Shown piece after piece: positions 7,202-22,166 of a stretch of DNA of 64,000 nucleotides. Position numbers and translations under genes: made by a program. This stretch comes from Nostocoides sp. Soil756. GTDB lineage: Bacteria; Actinomycetota; Actinomycetes; Actinomycetales; Dermatophilaceae. The stretch covers positions 437-64,436 of the forward strand of contig NZ_LMSE01000006.1 of assembly GCF_001428065.1 (NCBI RefSeq), read 5' to 3'. The notes below the pieces were generated by a model, which did not search any database, had not been told where the DNA came from, and worked only from the letters and a program-made list of their open reading frames with translations. Each line of letters opens with the position of its first letter. The first letter of the stretch is position 1.

Positions 7202-8374
7202 ATGGTCGACGGGCGTGGGGTCGAGGACGTGGTCGTCGTGGGGGCGGGTCCTGGGGGCCTGGCCGTGGCCGGCGCCCTGCGGATGCGCGGCGCCGACCCG
7301 TTGGTGCTCGACGCCGGCGCCGGTGTGGGTGAGCGCTGGCGCACCCACTACGAGCGGCTCCACCTGCACACCCCCCGTGGCTGGTCGCACCTCCCCGGGT
7401 ACCGCATCCCCCGGCGGTTCGGCCGGTGGGTGGCCCGTGACGACGTGGTCCGCTACCTCGAGGAGTACACCGCCCATCACCGGCTGCGGCTGCGCACCCA
7501 CACCGCCGTCGACCGCATCGACCCCGGCTCCGGCTCGGGCGACGCTCGATGGCACGTGCACCTGGCCGACGGCACGACGGTCGCCGCGCGTGACGTGGTG
7601 GTCGCCACCGGCTACAACCACACCCCGGTGACGCCCGCCTGGCCCGGTCGCGACGGCTTCACCGGCGAGATGCTGCACGCCCGCGGCTACCGCAACGGCC
7701 GGCCCTGGGCCGGGCGCGACGTCCTCGTCGTCGGCACCGGCAACACCGGCACCGAGATCGCCACCGACCTCGCCGAGCACGGGGCGACCCGGGTCTGGCT
7801 CTCGGTGCGCACCCCACCGCACATCCTGGCCCGCGACCGGATGGGGCTGCCGGCCCAGGCGACCGGCATCGCGGTGCGCCGCCTGCCGCCCCGGCTCGTC
7901 GACCGGGTCTCGGGGGTGCTGGCCCGGGTCCAGGAACCCGACCTGACGGAGTTCGGGATGCCGCGGGCCGCGCCCGACCTCTACAGCCGCACCCTCGAGG
8001 GCCGGGTCCCCGTGCAGGACGTCGGCATCGTCGGGGCCATCCGGGCGCGGCGGGTCGAGCCGGTGGCCGCGCTCGAGGCCTTCGACGGCGACGAGGTCGT
8101 CCTGGCCGACGGCACCCGGCTGCGCCCGGCCCTGGTGGTCACGGCCACCGGCTACCGGGCCGGCCTCGAGCCGCTGGTGGGCCACCTCGGCGTCCTGGGC
8201 GAGCGGGGGCTGCCGACCGTGCGCGGCTCGGCCCCCCCCGAAGCCCGCCCCGGCCTGTGGTTCACCGGGTTCACGAACCCGATCTCGGGGATGCTGCGCG
8301 AGCTGCGGATCGACGCCGGGCGCATCGCCGCCGGGATCAGCCCGTCGCGGGGAGGCGCTCGACCTCGAGGGTGA
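7202..8374 (+). CDS. FAD/NAD(P)-dependent flavin monooxygenase-like protein
   Basis: 390 aa. The FAD-binding motif GAGPGG is at 14-19 and the NAD(P) motif GTGNTG at 178-183. The paired ATGY motifs (near 136 and again near 315) are typical of flavin-containing monooxygenases and plant YUCCA-like enzymes. These use NADPH and O2 to hydroxylate or oxygenate small nucleophiles or carbonyls. The Baeyer-Villiger fingerprint FxGxxxHxxxW is not seen. The substrate is unknown. Its last 38 bp overlap the convergent reductase gene. Confidence 0.82.
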   Translation: MVDGRGVEDVVVVGAGPGGLAVAGALRMRGADPLVLDAGAGVGERWRTHYERLHLHTPRGWSHLPGYRIPRRFGRWVARDDVVRYLEEYTAHHRLRLRTHTAVDRIDPGSGSGDARWHVHLADGTTVAARDVVVATGYNHTPVTPAWPGRDGFTGEMLHARGYRNGRPWAGRDVLVVGTGNTGTEIATDLAEHGATRVWLSVRTPPHILARDRMGLPAQATGIAVRRLPPRLVDRVSGVLARVQEPDLTEFGMPRAAPDLYSRTLEGRVPVQDVGIVGAIRARRVEPVAALEAFDGDEVVLADGTRLRPALVVTATGYRAGLEPLVGHLGVLGERGLPTVRGSAPPEARPGLWFTGFTNPISGMLRELRIDAGRIAAGISPSRGGARPRG

Positions 8375-9651: not shown

Positions 9652-11064
9652 TCAGGGATGTGCGGCGCGCAGGACCTCGGCGTAGCGGGCCCGTACCTCG
9701 GCGCCGCGCTCGGGCGCGCGCGGGTCGACGGTGGCCTCGACCGCGACGGGCCACATGGGGGGTGCGTCGCCCCCGGCGAGGGCCCAGGCGGCCTGCCGCG
9801 CGGCCCCGACCGCCACGTACTCGCCCGGCTCCGGCACTGCCACCGGCGCCCCGAGGACGTCGGGCGCGACGGCCCGCACGGCCCGCGAGGCGGCCGCGCC
9901 CCCGATGAGCAGCACCCGGTCGACCGGGCAGCCGGCTCGCTCGCGCACGGCGTCGACGGCGCTCGCCAGCCCCAGCAGCATCCCCTCGACCACGGCCCGG
10001 GCCAGGTTCTCGGGGGTGGCGTTGGTGCGGGTCAGACCGTGCAGCGAGGCGGTGGCGTCGGGCAGGTTGGGGGTGCGCTCGCCGTCGAGGAAGGGCAGCA
10101 GGGTCAGACCGCCGGCGCCCGGCTCGGCCGCGAGAGCCAGCTCGTCGAGCCCGGCGAGGTCGACCCCGAGCATGGCCGCGCCGGCGGTGAGCACCCGGGC
10201 GGCGTTGAGGGTGCAGACCAGCGGGAGGAAGCCGCCCTCGGCATCGGCGAAGGACTGCACGAAGCCGCTGGGGTCGGCGGTCGGCCGGTCGTGGCGGGCG
10301 AAGGCGGTCCCGCTGGTGCCGAGGGAGACCACGACGTCGCCGCGGCCCAGCCCGAGCCCGAGGGCGGCGCCCATGTTGTCGCCGGTGCCGGGCGCGAGGG
10401 CCATCCCGTCGCGGGTGCGGCCCACCACCTCGGCCGGGCCGGCGACCCGGGGGAGTGCCAGGTCGCGCCCGGCGGCCAGGCGCAGCAGGTCGGGGCGGTA
10501 CTCGCGGGTGGCGGCGTCGAACCAGCCGGTGCCCGAGGCGTCGCCGGCGTCGGTGGTCCAGCCCTCGAAACCGCCTCGGTCGGCCAGGATGCGGCCGGTC
10601 AGCCAGTCGTGGGGGAGGACGACGCGAGTGGCCCGCTCCATCGAGGCGGGCTCGGCGTCGCGCACCCAGCGCACCTTGGCGGCGGTGATGGCGGCCAGGG
10701 GCACGATGCCCACGGCGTCGGCCCAGGCCTGCGGACCGCCGAGCTCGTCGACCAGGTCGCGGGCGGTGCCGGCCGAGCGGGTGTCGTTCCACAGCAGCGC
10801 CGGGCGCACCACCTCGTCGGCGTCGTCGAGCAGCACCATCCCGTGCTGCTGCCCGCCGACGGCCAGGGCCTGCACGTCATCGAGCAGCCCTCCGGCCGTG
10901 GCCGACTGCCACGCGTCCCACCAGCGGGCGGGGTCGACCTCGGTGGCGTCGGGATGGGTGCCGCGGCCGGTGCGCACGACCTCTCCGGTGGCGGCGTCGC
11001 ACACCACGACCTTGCAGGACTGCGTCGAGGTGTCGACGCCGGCGACGAGGGGGCGGTCGGTCAT
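9652..11064 (-). CDS. xylB: Xylulokinase (FGGY carbohydrate kinase)
   Basis: 470 aa FGGY-family kinase phosphorylating D-xylulose to xylulose 5-phosphate. Seen are the N-terminal phosphate loop GVDTSTQSCK, GQQHGM (xylulose-binding region), DWLTGR, GTGDNMGAALG, SLGTSGT and the C-terminal GGAAAS nucleotide site. Length and motif order match xylulokinases. The start is ATG 11064 with GGAGG ahead; longer upstream frames lack support. It is divergent from a ROK repressor gene and next to a sugar ABC importer, supporting a pentose role. Xylose isomerase is not in the window. Confidence 0.88.
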   Translation of the reverse strand: MTDRPLVAGVDTSTQSCKVVVCDAATGEVVRTGRGTHPDATEVDPARWWDAWQSATAGGLLDDVQALAVGGQQHGMVLLDDADEVVRPALLWNDTRSAGTARDLVDELGGPQAWADAVGIVPLAAITAAKVRWVRDAEPASMERATRVVLPHDWLTGRILADRGGFEGWTTDAGDASGTGWFDAATREYRPDLLRLAAGRDLALPRVAGPAEVVGRTRDGMALAPGTGDNMGAALGLGLGRGDVVVSLGTSGTAFARHDRPTADPSGFVQSFADAEGGFLPLVCTLNAARVLTAGAAMLGVDLAGLDELALAAEPGAGGLTLLPFLDGERTPNLPDATASLHGLTRTNATPENLARAVVEGMLLGLASAVDAVRERAGCPVDRVLLIGGAAASRAVRAVAPDVLGAPVAVPEPGEYVAVGAARQAAWALAGGDAPPMWPVAVEATVDPRAPERGAEVRARYAEVLRAAHP

Positions 11065-11165
11065 CGGTGGTCCTCCGGGCTCAGGGGCGGCACTGCCACC
11101 GCTCATCCTGTCAGGCCGGTCGGACGACGTGGCCGGGGATGCTTCCGCCCCGGCCTCCGCTCCCT

Positions 11166-11171
11166 TATCTT
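11166..11171 (+). promoter_or_regulatory. -10 box, leaderless ROK regulator promoter
   Basis: TATCTT ends 6 nt before GTG 11178. This supports the GTG start over longer upstream reading. Confidence 0.45.
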
Positions 11172-11177
11172 TGGCCC

Positions 11178-12368
11178 GTGAACCCAACGAGCGCGGCGCC
11201 GGGCTCGCAGGCGTCCCTCCGGGAGATGAACCGCCTGCGGGTGCTCGACGCGGTACGCGAGCACGGCGCCCTCACCCAGGTCGAGATCGCGGGTGTCACC
11301 GGGCTGTCGGCCGCCACCGTCTCGAACCTCGTCAAGGAGCTCGACGTCGCCGGGATGGTCGACCTGCGCCCGAGCATCCGCAACGGCCGCCGCGCCACCC
11401 AGGTGTCGGCGGCGACGTCCGAGGGGCTGCTCGGCGCTGCGGTGTTCGGTGACCGCGACGTCCGGGTGGCGGTGGCCACCGGCCCCGGCGACATCGTGAG
11501 CCAGCGCCGGATGCCGCTGCCGGCCGACCACGCCGCCGACGAGGGCCTGTCCCGCGCCGCCCGGCTGGTGCAGGAGCTCGTCGAGGCGACCGGCCACGGG
11601 ATGGCGGGCCTGCGGTCGCTGGTGGTGGGGCTGCCGGCCCCCATCGACACCGTCTCGGGCGAGGTGGGCTCCCAGGGCATCCTTCCCGGGTGGCAGGGCG
11701 TCGCGGTGGCCGCCGCCATGGAGGAGGCCGTGCAGGTGCCGGTCCGCCTCGACAACACCGCCAACCTGGCCGCGTTGGGGGAGGCGAGATACGGTGCGCT
11801 GCAGGGGGTCTCGACGGGCGTCTTTCTCAAAGTGTCCTACGGCGTAGGCGCGGGGCTGATCATCGGGGGCGAGCTGTTCCGGGGGAGCGCGGGCACCGCC
11901 GGTGAGATCGGGCACGTCACGATCGACGAGAACGGGCCCGTCTGCCGCTGCGGCAACCGCGGCTGCCTCGACACCTTCGTGGGTGCGCGCGCCGTGCTGT
12001 CGGCGCTGCGGCCCACCCACGGCACGCTCACCTTCCGCGACGTCATCTCGCGTGCCCTCGAGGGCGACCCGGGATGCCGCCGGGTCCTCGAGGACAGCGG
12101 TCGCCACCTCGGTGTCGCGCTGGCCGGAGTGGTCAACCTGCTGAACCCGGAGGTCATCGCGCTGGGTGGCCAGGTGGGGCGGGTCGGTGAGCTCGTGCTC
12201 GCCCCCATGCGCGAGGCGATCGAGCGCTGCGCCATCCCGAGCGCCGCCGCGTCGGTCGAGGTGCGCGTCGGCGCGCTGGGGCCCGAGGACTCCGACGTCC
12301 TGGGCGCCCTGGCCCTGGCCGACCAGCTGCGCGAGGACGCCGACCGGGCGGCGCTGGCGCTGCAGTGA
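11178..12368 (+). CDS. ROK family transcriptional regulator, XylR-like
   Basis: 396 aa. An N-terminal winged helix-turn-helix (LTQVEIAGVTGLSAATVSN, about residues 34-52) precedes a ROK sugar-kinase-like domain with the zinc motif CRCGNRGCLD. Such proteins are sugar-responsive repressors of neighbouring catabolic genes. GTG 11178 is chosen because an unbroken TATCTT -10 box ends 6 nt upstream and the HTH begins shortly after. It is divergent from xylB and followed by the pentose importer, where a perfect 16-bp palindrome could be its operator. The name xylR is inferred from context only. Confidence 0.82.
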   Translation: MNPTSAAPGSQASLREMNRLRVLDAVREHGALTQVEIAGVTGLSAATVSNLVKELDVAGMVDLRPSIRNGRRATQVSAATSEGLLGAAVFGDRDVRVAVATGPGDIVSQRRMPLPADHAADEGLSRAARLVQELVEATGHGMAGLRSLVVGLPAPIDTVSGEVGSQGILPGWQGVAVAAAMEEAVQVPVRLDNTANLAALGEARYGALQGVSTGVFLKVSYGVGAGLIIGGELFRGSAGTAGEIGHVTIDENGPVCRCGNRGCLDTFVGARAVLSALRPTHGTLTFRDVISRALEGDPGCRRVLEDSGRHLGVALAGVVNLLNPEVIALGGQVGRVGELVLAPMREAIERCAIPSAAASVEVRVGALGPEDSDVLGALALADQLREDADRAALALQ

Positions 12369-12396
12369 CCGTCGTGACCGAATCGTTGCCTCAATT

Positions 12397-12424
12397 CCTT
12401 GTATTCAAGGCTTGACGTCAAGCC
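12397..12424. promoter_or_regulatory. Overlapping palindromes upstream of the sugar importer
   Basis: CCTTG-tatt-CAAGG (12397-12410) runs into the perfect 16-bp palindrome GGCTTGACGTCAAGCC (12409-12424). The latter contains a -35-like TTGACG. The position, between the ROK regulator and the binding-protein gene, is right for a repressor site. Confidence 0.6.
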
Positions 12425-12495
12425 GTGAAGCGAGTTGACTTCCACCCAGCCCGCACCAGAGTGGCTGCGGACGTCATGGCACCCAGGAGAGACAC

Positions 12496-13590
12496 ATGAC
12501 CACTCGGTTCACCCGGATCGCCGGCGCCGTCCTCGCGCTCGGCCTGACCGCGACGGGCCTGGCGGCCTGCGGCAGCGACACCTCCGGCGGAGGGTCGAGC
12601 TCCGGCGCGGCCTCCGGCTCCGGCGGCGGCGCGCAGAAGATCGCCCTGCTCCTGCCCGAGAACAAGACCGCGCGCTACGAGGCGTTCGACAAGCCGATGT
12701 TCGAGGCGGCCGTCAAGGCCGCCTGCGCCGACTGCGAGGTGCTCTACAGCAACGCCGAGCAGGACGCGGCCAAGCAGCAGCAGCAGGCCGAGGCCGCCAT
12801 CACCCAGGGCGCGGACGTGCTCGTCCTCGACGCCGTCGACGGCAAGTCGGCCGCCACCATCGTCAACAACGCCAAGTCGCAGGGCATCCCCGTCGTCGCG
12901 TACGACCGCTTCGTGGCCGGCTCCGACTACTACGTCTCCTTCGACAACGAGAAGGTCGGCCAGCTGCAGGGCAAGGGCCTGGTCGACGCGATGAAGGCCA
13001 ACGGCGACACCAGCGGCGACATCGTGATGATCAACGGCTCGCCCACCGACGCCAACGCCGCCGACTTCAAGAAGGGTGCGCACAGCGTCCTGGACTCCAG
13101 CGGCTACACCATCAAGGCCGAGTACGACACCCCCGACTGGAGCCCCGACAAGGCCCAGGCGTGGATGGAGGGTCAGATCGGCACCCTCAAGGGCAACCTC
13201 GTGGGCGTGTACGCGGCCAACGACGGCACCGCCGGGGGCGCCATCGCGGCGCTCAAGGGTGGCGGCGTCGACCCGCTCCCGCCGGTCACCGGCCAGGACG
13301 CCGAGCTCGCCGCCATCCAGCGGATCATCAAGGGTGACCAGGCCCTGACCATCTACAAGGCCATCAAGCCCGAGGCCGAGGACGCCGCGAAGAACGCGCT
13401 CGCCCTGGCCAAGAAGGAGAAGCCGACCGCGGCGACCGAGAAGGAGGGCGTGCCCGCCACCCTGCTGGAGCCCGTGGTCGTGACCAAGGACAACATCAAG
13501 GACACCATCATCGCCGACGGCTTCTACAAGGCCTCGGACATCTGCACCGCCGAGTACGCCAAGGCGTGCGCCACCCTCGGCATCGGCTGA
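12496..13590 (+). CDS. xylF: Sugar ABC transporter substrate-binding lipoprotein (xylose type)
   Basis: 364 aa. A lipoprotein signal peptide ends at the lipobox LAAC (about residue 25), followed by a Gly/Ser linker, then a periplasmic-binding-protein type 1 fold (Peripla_BP_4: ALLLPENKTARYEAFDKPMF; DVLVLDAVDG; AANDGTAGGAI). Such proteins capture monosaccharides outside the membrane and deliver them to the permease. Xylose is favoured from the adjacent xylulokinase, but a related sugar cannot be excluded. An AGGAGAG ribosome-binding site precedes ATG 12496. A strong hairpin follows the gene, probably raising its expression relative to the ATPase. Confidence 0.85.
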   Translation: MTTRFTRIAGAVLALGLTATGLAACGSDTSGGGSSSGAASGSGGGAQKIALLLPENKTARYEAFDKPMFEAAVKAACADCEVLYSNAEQDAAKQQQQAEAAITQGADVLVLDAVDGKSAATIVNNAKSQGIPVVAYDRFVAGSDYYVSFDNEKVGQLQGKGLVDAMKANGDTSGDIVMINGSPTDANAADFKKGAHSVLDSSGYTIKAEYDTPDWSPDKAQAWMEGQIGTLKGNLVGVYAANDGTAGGAIAALKGGGVDPLPPVTGQDAELAAIQRIIKGDQALTIYKAIKPEAEDAAKNALALAKKEKPTAATEKEGVPATLLEPVVVTKDNIKDTIIADGFYKASDICTAEYAKACATLGIG

Positions 13591-13610
13591 GCCACCGAGC
13601 TCCACCACCC

Positions 13611-13646
13611 CGTCCCCGGGTCGGCCGCGAGGTCGGCCCGGGGACG
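13611..13646 (+). terminator. Intercistronic hairpin between binding protein and ATPase
   Basis: A 10-bp perfect stem (CGTCCCCGGG/CCCGGGGACG) continues inward with mostly paired bases to a GCGA loop, giving about 16 bp. There is no T-tract. In sugar ABC operons such hairpins protect or partly terminate the mRNA so the binding protein is made in excess. Confidence 0.65.
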
Positions 13647-13677
13647 CCCCACCCCCTCACGAAGGAGTGAGCCACCC

Positions 13678-14475
13678 GTGAGCACCACCACGACCCTGGC
13701 GCCCGTGCTGTCGATGACCGGGGTGTCCAAGCGCTTCGGCGCCGTGCAGGCCCTCAAGGACATCGACTTCGACGTGGCCGCGGGGGAGGTGGTGGCCCTG
13801 GTCGGCGACAACGGCGCGGGCAAGTCGACGCTGGTCAAGACGATCGCGGGCGTCTACTCACCGGACGGCGGGACGGTCGTCTTCGACGGTTCCCCGGTCA
13901 CCATCCACTCGCCCTCGGAGGCTCAGGCCCTCGGTATCGCCACCGTCTTCCAGGACCTCGCCCTGTGCGACAACCTCGACGTCGTCGGCAACCTCTTCCT
14001 CGGCAACGAGGTACTGCGCGGACGCGCCCTCGACGAGGTCACCATGGAGCAGGAGTCCTGGCGCCTGCTGCGCGAGCTGAGTGCCAAGATCCCCAGCGTC
14101 CGCATCCCCGTCGCCAGCCTGTCGGGCGGCCAGCGCCAGACGGTGGCCATCGCGCGCTCCCTGCTGGGCGCCCCCAAGGTCGTGATGCTCGACGAGCCGA
14201 CCGCCGCCCTCGGCGTCGCCCAGACCGCCGAGGTGCTCAACCTCGTCGAGCGGCTGCGCGAGAAGGGCCTGGGCGTCATCCTCATCAGCCACAACATGTC
14301 CGACGTGATGGCCGTCGCCGACCGCGTGGCGGTCCTGCGCCTCGGCCGCAACAACGGCGTCTTCCGGGTCGCCGACACCACCAGCCAGGAGATCATCGCG
14401 GCCATCACCGGCGCGACGACCAACGCCGTCACCGCCCGCGCCGCCCGCCGGGCCCCGCAGGAGGAGCAGTCGTGA
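13678..14475 (+). CDS. xylG: Sugar ABC transporter ATP-binding protein
   Basis: 265 aa with a single nucleotide-binding domain: Walker A GDNGAGKST, signature LSGGQRQ, Walker B VVMLDEPTAAL and switch His (ILISHN). Classical XylG/RbsA proteins are about 500 aa with two fused domains. This is the half-size form seen in many actinobacteria and in FrcA, so two copies would pair in the transporter. It is not a truncation: both ends are well formed. GTG 13678 has GAAGGAG upstream. The stop overlaps the permease start as GTGA. Confidence 0.85.
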   Translation: MSTTTTLAPVLSMTGVSKRFGAVQALKDIDFDVAAGEVVALVGDNGAGKSTLVKTIAGVYSPDGGTVVFDGSPVTIHSPSEAQALGIATVFQDLALCDNLDVVGNLFLGNEVLRGRALDEVTMEQESWRLLRELSAKIPSVRIPVASLSGGQRQTVAIARSLLGAPKVVMLDEPTAALGVAQTAEVLNLVERLREKGLGVILISHNMSDVMAVADRVAVLRLGRNNGVFRVADTTSQEIIAAITGATTNAVTARAARRAPQEEQS

Positions 14476-15743
14476 CCACCGCGCACACCCCACCGCCGGC
14501 CGACCCGAACGCGACCGCCGTCCCCGCCGACCTCCAGGACGAGCGCCTCATCGCCAGCCCGGGTGTCGGCGGCTGGGCCGGGGCCACCTGGCAGCGGGTG
14601 AAGTCCGGCGACCTCGGCTCGCTGCCGGTCGTCGTGGGCCTGGTCCTCATCTGGGGCGTCTTCTACGCCCTCAACCCGCTCTTCCTCTCGAGCCGCAACC
14701 TCGTGAACCTCACGGTGCAGATGGTGCCGATCGGCACCATCGCCATCGGGGTCGTCCTGGTGCTCCTGCTGGGCGAGATCGACCTCTCCGTGGGGTCGAT
14801 GTCGGGCCTGGCGGGCGCGATCCTGGCGGTGCTCTTCGTCCACCAGGGCCTCAACGTGTGGGTCGCCATCGTGGCCGCCCTGGCCGCCGGCGTCGTCACC
14901 GGGCTGGTCTACGGGTTGCTGTTCAACCGCTTCGGCGTGCCGAGCTTCGTCATCACCCTGGCGGGGCTGCTGGTGCTGCTCGGGCTGCAGATCCGCACCC
15001 TGGGCAAGGACGGCACCATCAACCTGCCGTTCGAGTCGGGCCTGGTGCAGTTCGCCTCCCAGCAGTTCCTCCCCGACGTGCTCGCCTACGTCCTGGCCGT
15101 CGCGGTGCCGGCCGTCTACCTGCTCTCGCGGCTGCGCACCAACCAGCGCCGTTCGGGTGCCGGCCTGTCGGCGGCGCCGCTGCCGGCGCTCGCCCTGCGG
15201 GCCGGCCTCCTGGCCCTGCTGCTGCTCGTCGCGGCCTACGTGCTGAACCGCGACCGCGGCGTGTCCTACATGGTCGTGCTGTTCATCGCGCTCGTGGTGG
15301 TGATGGACCTGTTCATCCGCCGCACCGCGTGGGGTCGCTCGGTCCTGGCCATCGGCGGCAACGTCGAGGCTGCGCGCCGGGCCGGCATCAACGTCAAGAG
15401 GGTGTACCTGACCGTCTTCATGCTGTGCTCGACCTTCGCGGCCCTCGGCGGCATCCTGGCGGCCGCGCGGCTGGCCTCGGCCAACCAGAGCAGCGGCGGC
15501 GCCGACACCAACCTCAACGCCATCGCGGCGGCGGTCATCGGCGGCACTTCCCTCTTCGGCGGCCGCGGCTCGGCCTACTCGGCGCTGCTCGGCATCGTCG
15601 TCATCTTCTCCATCAGCAACGGGCTGGCGCTGCTCTCGGTGTCGTCCGACGTGCGCTTCGTGGTCACCGGCGCCGTCCTCCTGCTGGCCGTCGTCATCGA
15701 CAGCCTCAGCCGTCGCAGCCGGGCCGCCCACGGGCGCGCCTGA
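14472..15743 (+). CDS. xylH: Sugar ABC transporter permease
   Basis: 423 aa, about ten hydrophobic segments, BPD_transp_2 family (RbsC/XylH). Typical segments are GEIDLSVGSM, RFGVPSFVITLAGLLVLLG, AIGGNVEAARRAGINV and IGGTSLFGGRGS. It has about 50 extra cytoplasmic residues at the N-terminus and an inserted loop near 215-250. It forms the membrane channel for the importer. GTG 14472 overlaps the ATPase stop (GTGA). A long hairpin terminator follows. Confidence 0.85.
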   Translation: MTTAHTPPPADPNATAVPADLQDERLIASPGVGGWAGATWQRVKSGDLGSLPVVVGLVLIWGVFYALNPLFLSSRNLVNLTVQMVPIGTIAIGVVLVLLLGEIDLSVGSMSGLAGAILAVLFVHQGLNVWVAIVAALAAGVVTGLVYGLLFNRFGVPSFVITLAGLLVLLGLQIRTLGKDGTINLPFESGLVQFASQQFLPDVLAYVLAVAVPAVYLLSRLRTNQRRSGAGLSAAPLPALALRAGLLALLLLVAAYVLNRDRGVSYMVVLFIALVVVMDLFIRRTAWGRSVLAIGGNVEAARRAGINVKRVYLTVFMLCSTFAALGGILAAARLASANQSSGGADTNLNAIAAAVIGGTSLFGGRGSAYSALLGIVVIFSISNGLALLSVSSDVRFVVTGAVLLLAVVIDSLSRRSRAAHGRA

Positions 15744-15826: not shown

Positions 15827-16729
15827 ATGGCGCTGACCGACCTCTCCCGCTGCTCGGCCGCGAGCCGGCACCGCGGCGACCCGCTCGCGGGCTCCGCGCC
15901 CGTGGCGGCCCGCTGGCTGCTCGTCGAGCACCACGGCCCGTGGGCCAAGGCCCCGCTCGACACCGCGCCGATGACCGGTCGGGTGGGTCAGGAGATGGAG
16001 GCCGTCACGGCCTCCTACGGCGGCCGGGTGCTGCTCATCCGCCGCCAGGGGCGTCGGCTCGGCGATACCGGCGACCCCGCCTGGTACGCCGTCGACACCG
16101 TGCGCGGCACCTGGGTCCGTGGCACGTGGCGCACGGCCGAGGACCTCCTCGCGGCTGCCCACGCGCTCGGCCCCGCCCTGAGCAGCAGCGACGAGGACGC
16201 CGAACCGATGGTGCTGGTCTGCACCCACGGCACCCGCGACGCCTGCTGCGCGGTGCGGGGCCGCCCCATCGCGGCGCGGCTGGTCCGCGAGCGGCCCGGC
16301 GACGTGTGGGAGTGCACCCACCTGGGCGGCCACCGCTTCTCCGGCACGCTCTTGGTGCTGCCCGACGGTGCCTGCTACGGCCGGCTCGACACCGACGACG
16401 CCGCCGAGGTCGTCACCGAGCACCTGGCCGGGCGCATCTCGGCCCGCCACCTGCGCGGCATCACGCGCTACGACCCCGAGGTCCAGGCGGCCGTGGCCGC
16501 GGTGCTCGGCGAGTACGGCCCCACCGACAGCACCGACGCCGAGGCGGGGCTCGTCACGCCGGGCCGGGACGGTGCTCCGACCCGGGTCGAGGTGCTCGGC
16601 CACGGGCCGGTGCCCGAGCTGGTCCTGGTCGACGTCGTGCGCGAGGACCTGCCCGAGGCCCCGCTCAGCTGCGGCGCGGGCCCCAAGGCGCACGTGGCCT
16701 ACCGCACCACCCTCTCGCTGCCCGACTGA
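15827..16729 (+). CDS. Sucrase/ferredoxin-like family protein
   Basis: 300 aa. The conserved C-terminal half carries CTHGTRDACCAVRGRP and WECTHLGGHRFSGTLLVLPDG, the cysteine/histidine fingerprints of the thioredoxin-fold 2Fe-2S family named sucrase/ferredoxin-like. Yeast Apd1 and Aim32 are relatives with Cys/His-ligated clusters. The role in bacteria is not defined; an electron-carrier or redox-homeostasis function is a reasonable guess. The start follows a close -10 box. Its last 31 bp overlap the convergent phosphoesterase gene. Confidence 0.78.
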   Translation: MALTDLSRCSAASRHRGDPLAGSAPVAARWLLVEHHGPWAKAPLDTAPMTGRVGQEMEAVTASYGGRVLLIRRQGRRLGDTGDPAWYAVDTVRGTWVRGTWRTAEDLLAAAHALGPALSSSDEDAEPMVLVCTHGTRDACCAVRGRPIAARLVRERPGDVWECTHLGGHRFSGTLLVLPDGACYGRLDTDDAAEVVTEHLAGRISARHLRGITRYDPEVQAAVAAVLGEYGPTDSTDAEAGLVTPGRDGAPTRVEVLGHGPVPELVLVDVVREDLPEAPLSCGAGPKAHVAYRTTLSLPD

Positions 16730-18867
16730 CCGTCGGCGGCCGCGGCCGGCACGGCGGGGACGGTCGTGCGGGTGAGCGGCTCGTCGGCCGTGCAGGTGCG
16801 CCCGGGGTCGTTCGGGCGGGTGTCGATCCGGTCGCCGTTGATGATCGAGACGTCGTCGTAGGCGGGCCGGCCCTCGATGATGTCGTGGAAGCGGTAGCGC
16901 GTGAGCGACGACAGGCGGCACTTGGGGCCGAAGGTCAGGATGTCGAACGCCGACGGCTGGCCCTCGAGCTCCTCGCCGCCGTCGGGCGACTCCTGCGCGA
17001 CGAAGTGCACGAACGGGCCGCCGCCGGTGAACGTGCCCACCTGGATGCGGTTGCCCTCGAGGTCGCTCGAGTGCATGTGGCCGTTGAGCAGGACCCCGCC
17101 CTTCACCCCGTCGAGGGCCCAGGGTTCGTGCGAGACGACGACGTCGGGGGCGGGTCGGTCGGCGAACGCGCGCTGGAAGGCCTCGCGGGCCGGGCGTTGC
17201 TTCGCGGGCGAGCCGGTGCCCGAGTCGCCGAACCAGCGGGGGTCGTTGAAGCCGGCGATGCGGATGCCGCCCACGGTGACCTCGTCGTAGTCGCCGTTCG
17301 GGCCCTGGAGGAGGACCACGTTGGGGACGTCCTGGAGCCGGGTGAGCAGCGCGGTGTCGGTGGCGCTCATGGCGTCGTGGTTGCCGCGGACGAACAGGTA
17401 CGGGACGCCCAGCGAGGCGATGCCCTCGAACATGCCGGACGCGCTCGCCTCGGTGACGGTGCCGAAGTTCACGAGGTCTCCGGCGTCGATGACGATGTCG
17501 ATGCTCTCCTGCTCGACGATGGTGCGCATCAAGGGGTACTGGAGGCCGCCGTGGATGTCGCTGACGAGGAGCACGCGTAGCGCGGGGTCGAACTCGAGCG
17601 ACCCGGCGGCGTACTTCTGCTGGAGGGCGGTCGAGAGGGCCAGGAGGTTGCGCAGGTAGGGGACGGCCTGGGTGGCGCGGGTCTCGACGTCGCCGAGCAG
17701 GCCCTGGTTGCGCTGGAGGGTGCCCAGGATCTCGGTGGCGGTGAAGGTGCCCTGCCGGCTCGGCTGGTAGGTGGTGTAGACGCTGCCGGCGGTCCCGACG
17801 GTGGCGACGGTCCAGGCCACCACCGAGGCGGTGACCAGCCAGGGTGGCGGCCGGCGACGACGGCCCAGGGCCCACGCGCCGACGACGACCAGCACCAGGA
17901 GGGCGGCCCCGAGGGCGAAGCGCAGGAGCACGGCCACGCCCGCGTCGCGGATGGCGGTGTCGAGCTCCTGAGGGCCGGGGCGCAGGGACGCCAGGCTGAC
18001 CCGGGGTCGCGAGAGGACGTCGGCGATGCTGGCCTTGACCTGCGGGACGGTGCGGATGCCGGGGGCGAGGCCCGTGAAGGTGACCCGGACGTCGCCGAAG
18101 GTGGTCTCGGCCCGCAGCTCACCCGCCCGTCGAGGGTCGCCGTCGAGACTGACCGTCGCCTGGTAGGTGCGGGTCTGTGCGGTCACCGGGGCCAGCGACG
18201 TCGCCCCGACGCCCGCGACCACGCAGCCGGCGGTGAGCCCGACCGCGGCCAGCACGTGCGCCACTCGGCGTGAGCCCACGCGGTGCCCGGCCGACCACCA
18301 GACCCCCACGGCGGTCACCAGCGGCCACAGCACCGTGAGGGCGGCCACGACCCGCTCGTGCGCACCGAAGGAGTCGCCGCTCAGCCCGAACAGGAGCGAG
18401 GCGACGGCCAGGAGCAGGACGGCCCCGGCCGGCCACGCGACCCGGCGGCGCAGGACCACGGGCCCGTCCCGCCGCGCGCCCACCACGGGCCAGAGCGCGA
18501 GCAGGACGAACGACGCCGTCGCGACGGCCGTGTGCAGTGACGAGGACTCGGTGCGCGAGGGGAGGGGGGCCAACGCGACGGCGACGGTCGCGAGGCCACC
18601 GAGCGCCAGCGCGACGCGGCCCGCACGGCGGGCGGCCCCGAGGGCGGCGGCCGTGACGCAGTGGGCGAGGCCCGTCACCACCAGCGCGGTCGTCATCACC
18701 CAGCGGTGCGGGGTGGCGAGGGAGGCGAGGGCGCTGATGGACTCGCTGCGGGGGTCGAAGCCGGCCCCCACCAGGTCGGCAGCCCAGGTCCAGCCCCCGA
18801 CGAGGGCCACCACCGCGACGGTCGCGCTGGCGACTGCGGTGCGCGCCGCGCCGGGAGGTCGGGACAT
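16699..18867 (-). CDS. DUF998 membrane domain fused to a metallophosphoesterase
   Basis: 722 aa. Residues 1-225 form about six membrane segments resembling DUF998 (DPRSESISALAS; HRWVMTTALVVTG). A beta-rich extracytoplasmic stretch follows (about 232-305), then two more membrane helices (about 312-335 and 343-365), then a calcineurin-like phosphoesterase. The metal motifs are DIHG (437-440), GDLV (463-466), GNHD (495-498), SHEP and GHMH. From residue about 203 onward it resembles ordinary actinobacterial membrane-anchored metallophosphoesterases, so the DUF998 part looks like an added module. The predicted helix order places the phosphoesterase outside the membrane, but topology is uncertain. 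ATG 18867 follows TAGGGT by 7 nt. The substrate is unknown. Confidence 0.8.
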   Translation of the reverse strand: MSRPPGAARTAVASATVAVVALVGGWTWAADLVGAGFDPRSESISALASLATPHRWVMTTALVVTGLAHCVTAAALGAARRAGRVALALGGLATVAVALAPLPSRTESSSLHTAVATASFVLLALWPVVGARRDGPVVLRRRVAWPAGAVLLLAVASLLFGLSGDSFGAHERVVAALTVLWPLVTAVGVWWSAGHRVGSRRVAHVLAAVGLTAGCVVAGVGATSLAPVTAQTRTYQATVSLDGDPRRAGELRAETTFGDVRVTFTGLAPGIRTVPQVKASIADVLSRPRVSLASLRPGPQELDTAIRDAGVAVLLRFALGAALLVLVVVGAWALGRRRRPPPWLVTASVVAWTVATVGTAGSVYTTYQPSRQGTFTATEILGTLQRNQGLLGDVETRATQAVPYLRNLLALSTALQQKYAAGSLEFDPALRVLLVSDIHGGLQYPLMRTIVEQESIDIVIDAGDLVNFGTVTEASASGMFEGIASLGVPYLFVRGNHDAMSATDTALLTRLQDVPNVVLLQGPNGDYDEVTVGGIRIAGFNDPRWFGDSGTGSPAKQRPAREAFQRAFADRPAPDVVVSHEPWALDGVKGGVLLNGHMHSSDLEGNRIQVGTFTGGGPFVHFVAQESPDGGEELEGQPSAFDILTFGPKCRLSSLTRYRFHDIIEGRPAYDDVSIINGDRIDTRPNDPGRTCTADEPLTRTTVPAVPAAAADGQSGSERVVR

Positions 18868-18874
18868 GCGCCAC

Positions 18875-18880
18875 ACCCTA
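18875..18880 (-). promoter_or_regulatory. -10 box, leaderless phosphoesterase promoter
   Basis: Minus-strand TAGGGT ends 7 nt before ATG 18867. It is mirrored by the same hexamer driving the divergent HAD gene at 18939. Confidence 0.5.
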
Positions 18881-18951: not shown

Positions 18952-19638
18952 ATGCCCTCGACCCGCGTCCCAGCCGCCCTGACCCGGACCTTCGCGGGGG
19001 TGCTGCTCGACATGGACGGCACCCTCATCGACTCCATCGGGGCGGTCGAGCGGTCGTGGCTGCGGTGGTGCCAGGAGCACGACGTCGACCCCCGACGGCT
19101 TGCGGGCTTCCACGGCGTCACCGCGCGCAACCTCATCGCCGAGCTGCTGCCCGAGGCGCAGCGCGACGCCGCCCACGACCGCATCGTCGAGCTCGAGGTG
19201 GCCGACGTCGACGGCATCGCGGTGCTGCCCGGTGCGGCCGAGCTGCTGGGGCTGCTGCGCGCCGCCGGGGTGCCGACGGCCATCGTCACGTCCTCGAGCG
19301 ACCCGTTGGCCGAGGCACGGCTGCGCGCCACCGGGCTGGCGCGCCCCGACGTCGTCGTCACCGCCGACCACGTCGAGCGCGGCAAGCCCTGGCCCGACCC
19401 CTGGCTGCTGGGCGCCGAGCGGCTCGGGCTCGACCCCGCCGACTGCCTGGTGGTCGAGGACGCCGTGGCGGGGCTGCGCGCGGCGCGGGCGGCCGGCTGT
19501 GGGGGGCTGGTCGCGGTGGAGAACACGATGGAGCGCGCCGAGCTGGAGCCGGAGTCCGACCTCGTGGTGCGCGACCTCGCGGCGCTGGTCGTCGAGGCCG
19601 TGGGGCGTGGGGTCCGTGTGGTGGGTGTCGAGGCATAG
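18952..19638 (+). CDS. HAD family hydrolase (beta-phosphoglucomutase/sugar phosphatase type)
   Basis: 228 aa HAD subfamily IA. Motif I DMDGTLIDS (nucleophile and acid Asp) is at about 20-28, motif II TSSS near 110, the motif III Lys is in GKPWPDPWL, and motif IV is VVEDAVAGLRAARAAG. The helical cap sits between motifs I and II. This arrangement is shared by small sugar-phosphate phosphatases (GPP/YniC-like) and beta-phosphoglucomutase. Phosphatase activity is more likely, because the usual mutase partner genes are missing. Divergent from the phosphoesterase, with a mirrored leaderless promoter. Confidence 0.82.
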   Translation: MPSTRVPAALTRTFAGVLLDMDGTLIDSIGAVERSWLRWCQEHDVDPRRLAGFHGVTARNLIAELLPEAQRDAAHDRIVELEVADVDGIAVLPGAAELLGLLRAAGVPTAIVTSSSDPLAEARLRATGLARPDVVVTADHVERGKPWPDPWLLGAERLGLDPADCLVVEDAVAGLRAARAAGCGGLVAVENTMERAELEPESDLVVRDLAALVVEAVGRGVRVVGVEA

Positions 19639-19648: not shown

Positions 19649-21322
19649 GTGGATGCCGACGCCGTCGTCGTGGGAGCCGGGCTCGCCGGCCTCGTCGCCG
19701 CGTGCGAGCTCGCCGACGCCCAGCGCTCGGTCGTGCTGCTCGACCAGGAGTCCGAGGCCAACCTGGGGGGCCAGGCGTGGTGGAGCTTCGGCGGCCTGTT
19801 CCTCGTCGACAGCCCCGAGCAGCGCCGGATGGGCGTCCACGACTCCCTCGAGCTGGCGTGGCAGGACTGGCAGGGCAGCGCGGGGTGGGACCGCCTCGTC
19901 GCACCCGACGGCGGGCCGGGCCCGGACCACTGGGGCCGCGAGTGGGCGCGCTCGTACGTCGAGTGGGCCGCCGGCGAGAAGCGCGCCTGGCTGCGCGAGC
20001 GCGGGGTGTCGTTCTTCCCGGTCGTCGGCTGGGCCGAACGGGGCGACGGCACCAGCGGCGGCCACGGCAACTCGGTGCCGCGCTTCCACATCCCGTGGGG
20101 GACGGGCACCGGCCTAGTCGCGCCGTTCGAGAAGCGGGTCCGGGAGCACATGGCCGGCGGCCGGATCGTCTACCGGCCGCGGCACCGGGTCGACGAGCTG
20201 GTGACCAGCGTCGGTGCCGTCACGGGGGTGCGCGGCGCGGTGCTGGCGCCCGACGCCTCACCGCGCGGGGTGGCCAGCAACCGCGAGGTCACCGGCGGCT
20301 TCGAGTACGGCGCCGAGGTCGTGCTGGTCGCCGCGGGCGGCATCGGCGGCGACCACTCGCTGGTGCGCGCCCACTGGCCCTCCCGTCTGGGGGAGGCGCC
20401 TCGCGACCTGCTCACCGGGGTCCCGGCCCACGTCGACGGCCGGATGCTCGCCATCACCGAGGCGGCCGGCGGCGCGGTGGTCAACCGCGACCGGATGTGG
20501 CACTACACCGAGGGCGTGCGCAACTGGGACCCGGTCTGGCCGGGGCACGGCATCCGCATCCTGCCGGGCCCGAGCTCGCTCTGGTTCGACGCGCACGGCG
20601 ACCGGTTGCCGAGCCCCTTCCTGCCCGGGTTCGACACCCTCGGCACGCTCGGGCACCTGCGGCGCACCGGGGCCGAGCACTCCTGGTTCGTCCTCAACCG
20701 CTCGATCGTCGGCAAGGAGTTCGCGCTCTCGGGCTCGGAGCAGAACCTCGACCTCACCGAGCGCCGCTACCGCGACGTGCTGCGGCGGCCGGTCACGAAG
20801 GTGCAGCCGTCGGTACAGGCCTTCCTCGACCACGGCGAGGACTGGCTCACCGCCGACACCCTCGACCAGCTGGTGGCGCGGATGAACGCCCTCGAGCCCG
20901 ACCATCCGATCGACGCCGCGCACCTGACGCGCCAGGTCGTCGAGCGCGACCGGCAGGTCGACAACGAGTTCACCAAGGACGCGCAGGTCGCGGCCATCCG
21001 GGTGGCTCGGCGCTACCGCGGCGACCGGCTCACCAAGCGCGCGTTCCCGCTGCACCGCATCCTCGACCCCAAGCACGGGCCGCTGGTGGCGGTGCGGCTG
21101 CGGGTGCTGTCGCGCAAGACCCTCGGTGGTCTGCACACCGACCTCTCGGGGCAAGTGCTCGACACGGCCGGTTCACCGGTGCCCGGGCTGTACGCCGCCG
21201 GTGAGGTGGCCGGGTTCGGCGGCGGCGGCGTGCACGGGTACCGCGCCCTCGAGGGCACGTTCGTGGGCGGATGCCTGTTCAGCGGGCGCGAGGCCGGGCG
21301 GGCGGCGGCGGCCGCGCTCTGA
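19649..21322 (+). CDS. FAD-binding dehydrogenase (KstD/fumarate-reductase flavoprotein family)
   Basis: 557 aa. The N-terminal dinucleotide motif is VVGAGLAGLVAACELA, followed by the acidic strand end LLDQESEANLGGQAWWS. The long FAD_binding_2 domain ends in the family signature GLYAAGEVAGFGGGGVHGYRALEGTFVGGCLFSG (given by its key Gly and Glu residues near 508-541). This subfamily is usually annotated as FAD-binding dehydrogenase and is related to 3-ketosteroid-delta1-dehydrogenase. No steroid genes are nearby, so the substrate is open. It lies 10 nt after the HAD gene. Confidence 0.8.
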   Translation: MDADAVVVGAGLAGLVAACELADAQRSVVLLDQESEANLGGQAWWSFGGLFLVDSPEQRRMGVHDSLELAWQDWQGSAGWDRLVAPDGGPGPDHWGREWARSYVEWAAGEKRAWLRERGVSFFPVVGWAERGDGTSGGHGNSVPRFHIPWGTGTGLVAPFEKRVREHMAGGRIVYRPRHRVDELVTSVGAVTGVRGAVLAPDASPRGVASNREVTGGFEYGAEVVLVAAGGIGGDHSLVRAHWPSRLGEAPRDLLTGVPAHVDGRMLAITEAAGGAVVNRDRMWHYTEGVRNWDPVWPGHGIRILPGPSSLWFDAHGDRLPSPFLPGFDTLGTLGHLRRTGAEHSWFVLNRSIVGKEFALSGSEQNLDLTERRYRDVLRRPVTKVQPSVQAFLDHGEDWLTADTLDQLVARMNALEPDHPIDAAHLTRQVVERDRQVDNEFTKDAQVAAIRVARRYRGDRLTKRAFPLHRILDPKHGPLVAVRLRVLSRKTLGGLHTDLSGQVLDTAGSPVPGLYAAGEVAGFGGGGVHGYRALEGTFVGGCLFSGREAGRAAAAAL

Positions 21323-21560
21323 CGGGTGGCCGGCGCGCCAGAACCCCGCACCTGCGGAGTTGTTGCGGTGGGAGCAGCCCCTCGCGCGCAACAACCCGGC
21401 ACGTGGCTGAGTGTCGTGGCGGGACAGCCGCCTCATTCGTGGGGTTGACCTCCCGTGTCGCCGCAGCCCGCTACTGTTCCGCCCGGGGGTCCGGATGGCT
21501 CCACGCCGGGCGGCCCATCCCGAGGCAGGCTACGGCCGACACGTAGGGAGCTCTGGAACG
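21323..21560. promoter_or_regulatory. Intergenic region: hairpin, then likely promoter
   Basis: GTTGTTGCG (21359-21367) pairs with CGCAACAAC (21387-21395) and probably ends the flavoprotein transcript. Further on, TTGACC (21445-21450) and TACTGT (21472-21477) could be promoter elements of the next gene, although the 21-bp spacer is long. TAGGGAG just before ATG 21561 may act as its ribosome-binding site. Confidence 0.4.
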
Positions 21561-22166
21561 ATGATCACGTCGGTGGTGAAGGTGGTGGCGGGGGGCGTCG
21601 TCGTGGCGATCCTCCTGATCGGGGGACTCGTCGTGGCGACCACGCAGGGTTGGTCCCTCCCCTTCGGGAGTCGAAGCGAAAGCCGGGACTCCCAGGTCAT
21701 CCAGGCGATCGAGCGCACGCAGGAGGTCTCGTTGGTCAGCCTCAGCATCCAGGGCATCGCGTCGCAGAAGACGAACGCCACCCTGTTCGGGAAGGCCATC
21801 CCCGGGTCGACCAGCAGTGTGTTCCTGCAGTACACCTTCAAGGGGAAGCTCGGCATCGACGGGGCCGCGGCGAAGGTGGCGACGGTCGGGCAGAGCGCCT
21901 ACCGGGTCACCGTGCCGGAGTTCATCTTCATCGGTTACGACGAGCCGACGTTCGAGGTCGCCACGGAGGCCGGCGACTTCCTGAGCTGGACCGCGCCGGA
22001 GCCTGACAAGCTCAAGATGGTGAACGAGATCCTCGACCAGAAGGCCCAGCAGAAGTACCTCGACTCGAACCAGGGCGTCCTGAAGGACCAGGCGAAGACC
22101 TTCTACACGACGTTGATCACGACCATCGACCCGGCCGCGGTGGTCACGATGGAGTTCGCGTCCTGA
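21561..22166 (+). CDS. Membrane-anchored hypothetical protein, DUF4230-like
   Basis: 201 aa. One N-terminal membrane helix (about residues 4-27) is followed by an exported domain. The order of features, with a paired helix VIQAIERTQEVSLVS, then an LFG segment, then YTFKGKLGID and a later YRVTVPEF strand, resembles DUF4230 proteins, whose function is unknown. This is a pattern match by eye and could be wrong. The codon choice and overall composition are visibly less GC-extreme than the neighbours, and it is flanked by stem-loops, so it may be an acquired gene. Confidence 0.6.
   Translation: MITSVVKVVAGGVVVAILLIGGLVVATTQGWSLPFGSRSESRDSQVIQAIERTQEVSLVSLSIQGIASQKTNATLFGKAIPGSTSSVFLQYTFKGKLGIDGAAAKVATVGQSAYRVTVPEFIFIGYDEPTFEVATEAGDFLSWTAPEPDKLKMVNEILDQKAQQKYLDSNQGVLKDQAKTFYTTLITTIDPAAVVTMEFAS

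What the first reader, a model, noticed from the sequence alone, without database searches (positions are those of the whole stretch)
16699..18867. DUF998 membrane module fused to a membrane-anchored metallophosphoesterase
The protein adds about 225 residues of DUF998-like membrane helices in front of what looks like a complete actinobacterial membrane metallophosphoesterase with all metal motifs intact. A fusion of this kind suggests that the unknown DUF998 domain presents or recognises the phosphoester substrate, perhaps a lipid or polyprenyl phosphate. It offers a rare clue to DUF998 function.
Basis: partly seen in the sequence, partly recalled or inferred. Interest (0 to 1): 0.55.

Follow-up and report, generated by a model that had tools for sequence, protein, structure and literature searches.

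The report
Membrane esterase-like domain fused to phosphoesterase
An actinobacterium and its relatives carry one membrane protein that joins a poorly understood six-helix domain (DUF998), which has an unchanging serine and histidine of the kind seen in ester-cutting enzymes, to an enzyme that probably cuts phosphate bonds outside the cell, which gives a testable idea of what the unknown domain does.

Summary
The fusion is conserved but not standard: of 133 genomes of the family with this phosphoesterase, 36 have the fused and 97 the stand-alone form. The fused form is one clade with two nested exceptions. DUF998 genes also lie near stand-alone copies: directly upstream in two of three genomes of one genus, and 4 of 72 within 6 kb against 0.22 expected. 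Across 82 DUF998 sequences only two columns never vary, S45 and H112; both are predicted extracytoplasmic, the phosphoesterase's side. In fused proteins both are kept (32 of 35) or both lost (3 of 35, two lineages), never one alone. One DUF998 protein was reported to hydrolyse acyl esters (PMC6302743). So DUF998 is more likely a Ser/His acyl-ester hydrolase than a passive substrate presenter, and the fusion a bifunctional envelope-lipid enzyme. Catalysis, topology and substrate are inferred.

The parts
16699..18867 (-). whole gene, 722 aa, DUF998-metallophosphoesterase fusion
   Evidence: homologues
18307..18819 (-). DUF998 domain (residues 17-187); six predicted helices 7-33, 55-75, 81-99, 110-130, 141-160, 167-192
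   Evidence: Pfam; AlphaFold2 models (DUF998 alone: pLDDT 90.8, pTM 0.87)
18733..18735 (-). codon of S45, invariant in the DUF998 rows examined, in predicted outer loop 1-2
   Evidence: 82 of 82 rows
18532..18534 (-). codon of H112, invariant in the DUF998 rows examined, outer end of helix 4
   Evidence: 82 of 82 rows
17770..18270 (-). membrane anchor of the phosphoesterase part: helix 200-225, beta region 228-277, helices 299-336 and 342-366
17071..17580 (-). calcineurin-like phosphoesterase domain (Pfam residues 430-599), positions D437, H439, D464, N496, H580, H597, H599; structural matches run to about residue 687

Best explanation
The protein is a bifunctional envelope enzyme of the cytoplasmic membrane. 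The N-terminal six-helix DUF998 domain is probably an acyl-ester hydrolase (or acyl transferase) whose S45 and H112 lie at the extracytoplasmic membrane surface. The chain then crosses the membrane three more times, so that the C-terminal metal-dependent phosphoesterase also faces outwards. The two are joined because they act on the same outer-leaflet acylated phosphoester: DUF998 removes or exchanges an acyl chain, and the phosphoesterase cleaves the phosphate ester of that lipid or of its deacylated product. Shown here: the two domains, the fused versus stand-alone distribution, the adjacent-gene form, the invariant S/H pair and its paired loss. Inferred: topology (charge rule and model), catalysis by S45 and H112, a shared substrate and its chemical class.
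For: Domains: and 23 of 23 fused homologues. Conserved clade. Adjacent unfused form: in G035 the DUF998 stop (L120:8022-8024) is 4 nt before an in-frame GTG of a 542-aa phosphoesterase frame; in G365 of the same genus the order is the same, first ATG 49 nt after the stop. 4 of 72 DUF998 genes within 6 kb of a stand-alone copy, 0.22 expected. S45 and H112 are the only invariant columns in 82 DUF998 rows (36 clusters below 50% identity); the next column is 88%. Both kept in 32, both lost in 3, one lost in 0 of 35 fused genomes. In the lineage that lost the pair DUF998 branches are long (0.89 to the midpoint root, tips 0.80 and 1.33) next to those of the phosphoesterase in the same rows (stem 0.52, then 0.081, tips 0.30 and 0.37). 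Charges: loop 8-9 has 4.0 K/R and no D/E on average, loop 4-5 1.7 against 1.2, loop 6-7 0.96 against 0.04, outer loop 1-2 0.96 against 2.78. Literature: DUF998 clone 1315H hydrolysed p-nitrophenyl esters, valerate best, unpurified (PMC6302743, passages).
Against: No activity has been measured on this protein. D103, Asp in 64 of 82 DUF998 rows, is P or T in nearly all fused rows, so a Ser-His-Asp triad is not conserved in the fused subfamily. S45 and H112 could instead bind a head group or a metal ion, or be structural; their distance in the model was not measured. 1315H was assayed unpurified and its sequence was not seen here. 97 of 133 relatives have the phosphoesterase without DUF998 in the chain. 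Stand-alone DUF998 genes of the fused subfamily also occur away from any phosphoesterase: a profile of that subfamily finds 13 of 83 wider DUF998 loci at E 1e-5, and in the four I could compare (G148, G119, G112, G094) the phosphoesterase lies elsewhere. G364, of the same genus as G035 and G365, has no such DUF998. In L155 and L156 the alpha/beta hydrolase follows DUF998 without an extra helix that I could see, so it would be cytoplasmic if the N-terminus is inside, which fits poorly with a general same-side rule. Two exceptions nest in the fused clade.
Confidence: 0.43

Rival explanations
1. One reading: DUF998 is a non-catalytic membrane module that binds or presents a lipid or polyprenyl phosphate to the phosphoesterase.
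For: Fusion and adjacency imply a shared process; both parts are predicted on the same membrane face; G312, G021 and G376 lost S45 and H112 yet keep the fused DUF998 helices, which suggests a non-catalytic role there.
Against: The strict S/H pair (82 of 82) and its paired loss look catalytic; 97 of 133 relatives have no fused DUF998; a DUF998 protein showed esterase activity in print (PMC6302743, passages).
Confidence: 0.25
2. Co-expression fusion: two envelope enzymes of one operon were joined in an ancestor; they act on different substrates and the link has no mechanistic meaning.
For: A two-gene form with a 4-nt gap exists; L029, a stand-alone row, nests within the fused clade, and G377 holds only a remnant of DUF998, so the link can be lost.
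Against: The fused form persists in seven genera and 36 genomes, and the DUF998 part is well conserved where the pair is kept (A2, 21 rows, mean column identity 70%).
Confidence: 0.21
3. DUF998 of this subfamily is an acyl transferase that remodels a lipid (as proposed for PGAP2), and the phosphoesterase removes a phospho-substituent from the same glycolipid, in analogy to GPI-anchor remodelling.
For: DUF998 and Frag1 families are reported to be structurally alike six-helix bundles (PMC10584675, passage); the N-terminal part of yeast CWH43 corresponds to PGAP2 and its C-terminal part to an EEP-domain protein, and PGAP5 is a membrane metallophosphoesterase (PMC7125958 and PMC10704324, passages).
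Against: No sequence relation to Frag1 at its cut-off (best E 0.68 in 1 of 23 rows; 0 of 197 class genomes over the cut-off); the CWH43 C-terminal domain has another fold; bacteria make no GPI anchors (recalled).
Confidence: 0.11

Closest known systems
DUF998 (Pfam PF06197)
   Same: Six-helix domain matched at 69.5 bits; S45 and H112 present.
   Different: A subfamily without the common D103, fused to another enzyme. Of 20 DUF998 loci picked for long frames, only two proved fusions, both to alpha/beta hydrolases; the rest were judged spurious frames by eye.
Membrane-anchored calcineurin-like metallophosphoesterase of actinobacteria (Metallophos PF00149)
   Same: Same C-terminal part of about 520 residues and same metal positions; a profile of it finds matches in 91 of 246 class genomes.
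   Different: The usual form in the family has no DUF998 in the chain (97 of 133).
Purple acid phosphatases, GpdQ glycerophosphodiesterase, Rv0805, SbcD/Mre11 (solved folds)
   Same: Catalytic domain aligns: 2bq8 Z 17.2, rmsd 3.9 over 231; GpdQ 2dxl Z 16.4, rmsd 3.8 over 214.
   Different: Identities under 20%, no matching membrane part; near-tied scores do not single out a substrate.
Eukaryotic CWH43 (PGAP2/Frag1-like N-terminus plus EEP domain)
   Same: Plan: a six-helix membrane domain of a fold reported as alike to DUF998, joined to a phosphoester-hydrolase-type domain (PMC10584675, PMC7125958, PMC10704324; passages).
   Different: C-terminal fold is EEP, not calcineurin-like; no sequence relation at the Pfam cut-off.
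DUF998-alpha/beta-hydrolase fusions (L155, L156)
   Same: DUF998 N-terminal to another hydrolase in one chain.
   Different: Partner is an alpha/beta hydrolase, attached without extra transmembrane helices that I could see.

Membership tests
DUF998 (PF06197) | Pfam profile match above the gathering score | tested here: met
   69.5 bits against 30
DUF998 (PF06197) | S45 and H112, found here to be invariant in the rows examined | tested here: met
   Present in the window protein; 82 of 82 wider rows
Calcineurin-like metallophosphoesterase (PF00149) | Pfam profile match above the gathering score | tested here: met
   44.7 bits against 21.5
Calcineurin-like metallophosphoesterase (PF00149) | Metal motifs DxH, GDxxN, GNHD, H, GHxH (motifs recalled) | tested here: met
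   Seven positions present in the window protein and in all fused rows that cover them
Calcineurin-like metallophosphoesterase (PF00149) | Phosphoester hydrolysis | not testable with these tools
   needs an assay
Frag1/DRAM/Sfk1 (PF10277) | Pfam profile match above the gathering score | tested here: not met
   Not among the matches of the window protein; best E 0.68 in 1 of 23 homologues
Frag1/DRAM/Sfk1 (PF10277) | Same six-helix fold | not tested
   Reported for DUF998 in PMC10584675 (passage); no direct comparison was made here
CWH43-type enzyme | EEP-fold C-terminal domain | tested here: not met
   C-terminal domain matches Metallophos and aligns to calcineurin-like folds
Serine acyl-ester hydrolase | Nucleophilic Ser and catalytic His | tested here: inconclusive
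   Invariant Ser/His pair and paired loss; geometry and activity not tested
Serine acyl-ester hydrolase | Acidic third residue | tested here: inconclusive
   D103 in 64 of 82 wider rows, P or T in nearly all fused rows

The most novel reading that the evidence does not exclude
DUF998 is a large prokaryotic family of extracytoplasmic membrane acyl-ester hydrolases or acyl transferases with an S45/H112 catalytic pair, the prokaryotic counterpart of PGAP2/Frag1. This fusion would be a bacterial lipid-remodelling enzyme with the same plan as CWH43 (acyl-chain domain plus phosphoester hydrolase), reached independently with a different phosphoesterase fold.
Probability: 0.3. Interest if true: 0.8.

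Novelty: new variant of a known kind. Interest (0 to 1): 0.52.

Why it matters
DUF998 is widespread (121 of 246 class genomes) and named as of unknown function; only 5 papers of the library hold the word. The fusion and the adjacent-gene form tie it to a phosphoesterase predicted to face outwards, and the invariant Ser/His pair names two residues to mutate. That makes the function of a large domain family directly testable. It may also inform the Frag1/PGAP2 fold in eukaryotes, where it is unclear whether PGAP2 is itself the acyl transferase (PMC7125958, passage).

Tried and rejected
Frame lengths of 457-459 and 582 aa in the DUF998 survey looked like further fusions; read by eye they were spurious high-GC frames before or after DUF998. 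PDB searches with the DUF998 model gave nothing convincing: Foldseek best E 0.39; VIA-align best Z 10.1 to a designed helical barrel, followed by filaments, GPCRs and rhodopsins, which the tool notes as a common level for helical bundles. The Frag1 profile in 197 class genomes gave two hits, both under the cut-off; read by eye neither is a DUF998. Plasmid searches for DUF998 in other phyla returned 19 records, all actinobacterial, so the S45/H112 result rests on Actinomycetota alone. Promoter and terminator scans found nothing.

I had held that the profile of the fused subfamily finds hardly any DUF998 that is neither fused nor near the phosphoesterase. That was true only of the loci held; later loci include 13 of 83 that it finds, so I dropped the claim of an exclusive subfamily. 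I had also called the locus the same throughout; one search shows it for part of the loci only. Confidence in the best explanation was lowered from 0.45 to 0.43 for this.

Rows dropped. DUF998 alignment: 83 loci found, one short row left out, 82 used. Its rows are mostly the best-scoring matches, plus the 20 picked for long frames, so weak DUF998 matches are hardly sampled. S45/H112 count: 36 fused genomes, G377 left out because part of its frame reads N; what can be read there has I at both positions; the second fragment of G009 lacks the region. Tree: L131 (G377) is labelled alone though it holds a DUF998 remnant, and L058 and L067 are the same gene.

Full report
What is there. The minus strand of window 16699-18867 encodes a 722-residue protein. 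Pfam finds DUF998 at 17-187 (69.5 bits, cut-off 30) and Metallophos at 430-599 (44.7 bits, cut-off 21.5). No chain of the PDB is similar by sequence at E up to 1. It is the only match in its genome at E 0.001. AlphaFold2 gives six helices for DUF998 (alone: pLDDT 90.8, pTM 0.87), then a helix at 200-225, a beta region, two more helices and the catalytic domain (full length: pLDDT 79.3, pTM 0.53). The relative placement of the two halves is therefore uncertain. The catalytic domain aligns to purple acid phosphatase (Z 17.2), GpdQ (Z 16.4), SbcD and Rv0805.

Topology. In 23 fused homologues the loop after helix 8 has 4.0 K/R and no D/E on average; loop 4-5 has 1.70 K/R against 1.17 D/E, loop 6-7 0.96 against 0.04, and loop 1-2 0.96 against 2.78. 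This puts the N-terminus inside, loops 1-2 and 3-4 outside, and the phosphoesterase outside. It is an inference from charge and model; loops 3-4 and 5-6 are neutral on this test. Conserved polar residues of DUF998 on the outer side are D38, E42, S43, S45, R55, R105, H112, H170, E171 and R172; others (R9, H69, R84, H195, R196) are inside or within the membrane.

How standard is the fusion. Of 186 genomes of the family 134 match the query at E 1e-8. One, G424, matches by DUF998 only. Of the other 133, 36 match over both parts (genera g1, g147, g17, g20, g22, g7, g11) and 97 only in the phosphoesterase part, with matches that begin at about residue 163-216 or later. All 12 genomes of the window's genus have the fused form, one of them in two contig pieces. 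Gene neighbours were compared in 50 loci (on the gene calls). Of 23 fused loci, 13 have the FAD dehydrogenase or HAD gene upstream and the sucrase/ferredoxin-like gene downstream within three genes, 5 have one side and 5 neither. Of 27 stand-alone loci, 9 have both, 5 one and 13 neither. In the window itself both sides are present: HAD 18955-19638, FAD dehydrogenase 19649-21322, sucrase/ferredoxin-like 15827-16729 (Pfam), though my gene caller missed the first two. So fused and stand-alone genes occupy one ancestral locus in a good part of the family, not in all. In a tree of 62 phosphoesterase domains the fused label needs three changes against 20.8 in shuffled labels. One gain and two nested exceptions is the simplest reading: L029 (a stand-alone gene on a long branch) and L131 (G377, a DUF998 remnant that I had labelled alone).

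The unfused neighbour form. In G035 a DUF998 gene stands between the FAD dehydrogenase and the phosphoesterase gene. Its stop is L120:8022-8024, and an in-frame GTG at 8029 opens a 542-aa phosphoesterase frame. G365 of the same genus has the same order, with the first ATG 49 nt after the DUF998 stop. G364, the third genome of that genus, has no such DUF998. G410 and G438 have a DUF998 gene about 2.6 and 4.0 kb from the phosphoesterase. Among 97 stand-alone genomes with 72 DUF998 genes, 4 lie within 6 kb (start to start); 0.22 are expected, Poisson P 8e-5. Two of the four share a genus, so the true weight is lower. G035, G410 and G438 lie outside the fused clade of the phosphoesterase tree, so the association is either older than the fusion or arose more than once. 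Against a tight bond: a profile of the fused subfamily also finds 13 of 83 wider DUF998 loci at E 1e-5, and in the four of these that I could compare (G148, G119, G112, G094) the phosphoesterase lies elsewhere.

The Ser/His pair. An alignment of 82 DUF998 proteins from Actinomycetota (36 clusters below 50% identity) has exactly two invariant columns, S45 and H112; the next is L47 at 88%, and D103 is Asp in 64 of 82. A first alignment of 55 showed the same. The rows are mostly best-scoring matches. Among 35 fused genomes with both positions readable, 32 keep both residues, 3 lost both (G021 and G376 of one genus; G312, whose three genus mates keep both) and none lost one only; the metal positions are intact in all rows that cover them. 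Where the pair is lost in the G021/G376 lineage, DUF998 branches are long (0.89 to the midpoint root, tips 0.80 and 1.33) while those of the phosphoesterase are moderate. This is the pattern expected of two residues that work together and are useless alone. With two independent losses it is suggestive, not proof. The DUF998 clone 1315H was selected from a metagenome by ester hydrolysis and, unpurified, hydrolysed p-nitrophenyl esters with valerate preferred; [quoted passage not shown]). A search for papers with DUF998 and metallophosphoesterase found none; PF06197 occurs in one paper. The library holds open PubMed Central papers only.

Reading. I conclude that the DUF998 domain is more probably an enzyme acting on acyl esters than a passive presenter, and that the fusion couples it to a phosphoesterase on the outer face, most likely to act on one outer-leaflet phospholipid or glycophospholipid. 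The lipid is not identified. The resemblance to eukaryotic CWH43 is one of plan: DUF998 and Frag1 families are reported as structurally alike six-helix bundles (PMC10584675, passage), and CWH43 joins a PGAP2-like part to an EEP-type domain (PMC7125958, PMC10704324, passages). Membership fails on sequence and on the catalytic fold. Two other DUF998 proteins are fused to alpha/beta hydrolases (L155, L156), so DUF998 has been joined to hydrolases more than once; there the hydrolase would be cytoplasmic if the N-terminus is inside.

Limits. No coordinates were available to me, so the S45-H112 distance and any cavity could not be checked. DUF998 outside Actinomycetota was not reached. D103 is missing from nearly all fused rows. 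Activity, substrate and topology need experiments.

Noticed in passing
L155:627-2171 (-) and L156:1442-3295 (+): DUF998 fused to an alpha/beta hydrolase in two genomes of different families, one of them (G371) in the window's own family; L156 also has a match below the cut-off to the PGAP1-like domain.
   Followed up: partly
L147:1355-2686 (-): An alpha/beta hydrolase frame lies next to a DUF998 gene on the same strand, perhaps the unfused version of the same pairing.
   Followed up: no
window 9655-15743: FGGY sugar kinase, ROK regulator, periplasmic binding protein, ABC ATPase and permease: looks like an ordinary sugar uptake locus.
   Followed up: no
window 16699-16729: The fused gene and the convergent sucrase/ferredoxin-like gene (15827-16729) overlap by 31 bases at their 3' ends.
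   Followed up: no
window 18875-18880: TAGGGT lies 8-13 bases before the ATG, which could be a -10 box of a leaderless transcript; not tested, and the sigma-70 scan found no site.
   Followed up: no
window 21411-22166: 251-aa protein with a hydrophobic stretch and no Pfam match at 1e-4.
   Followed up: no
L060 and L064 (G028), and G403: The stand-alone phosphoesterase is read in two or three frames in these genomes, a possible decayed gene or sequencing error.
   Followed up: no
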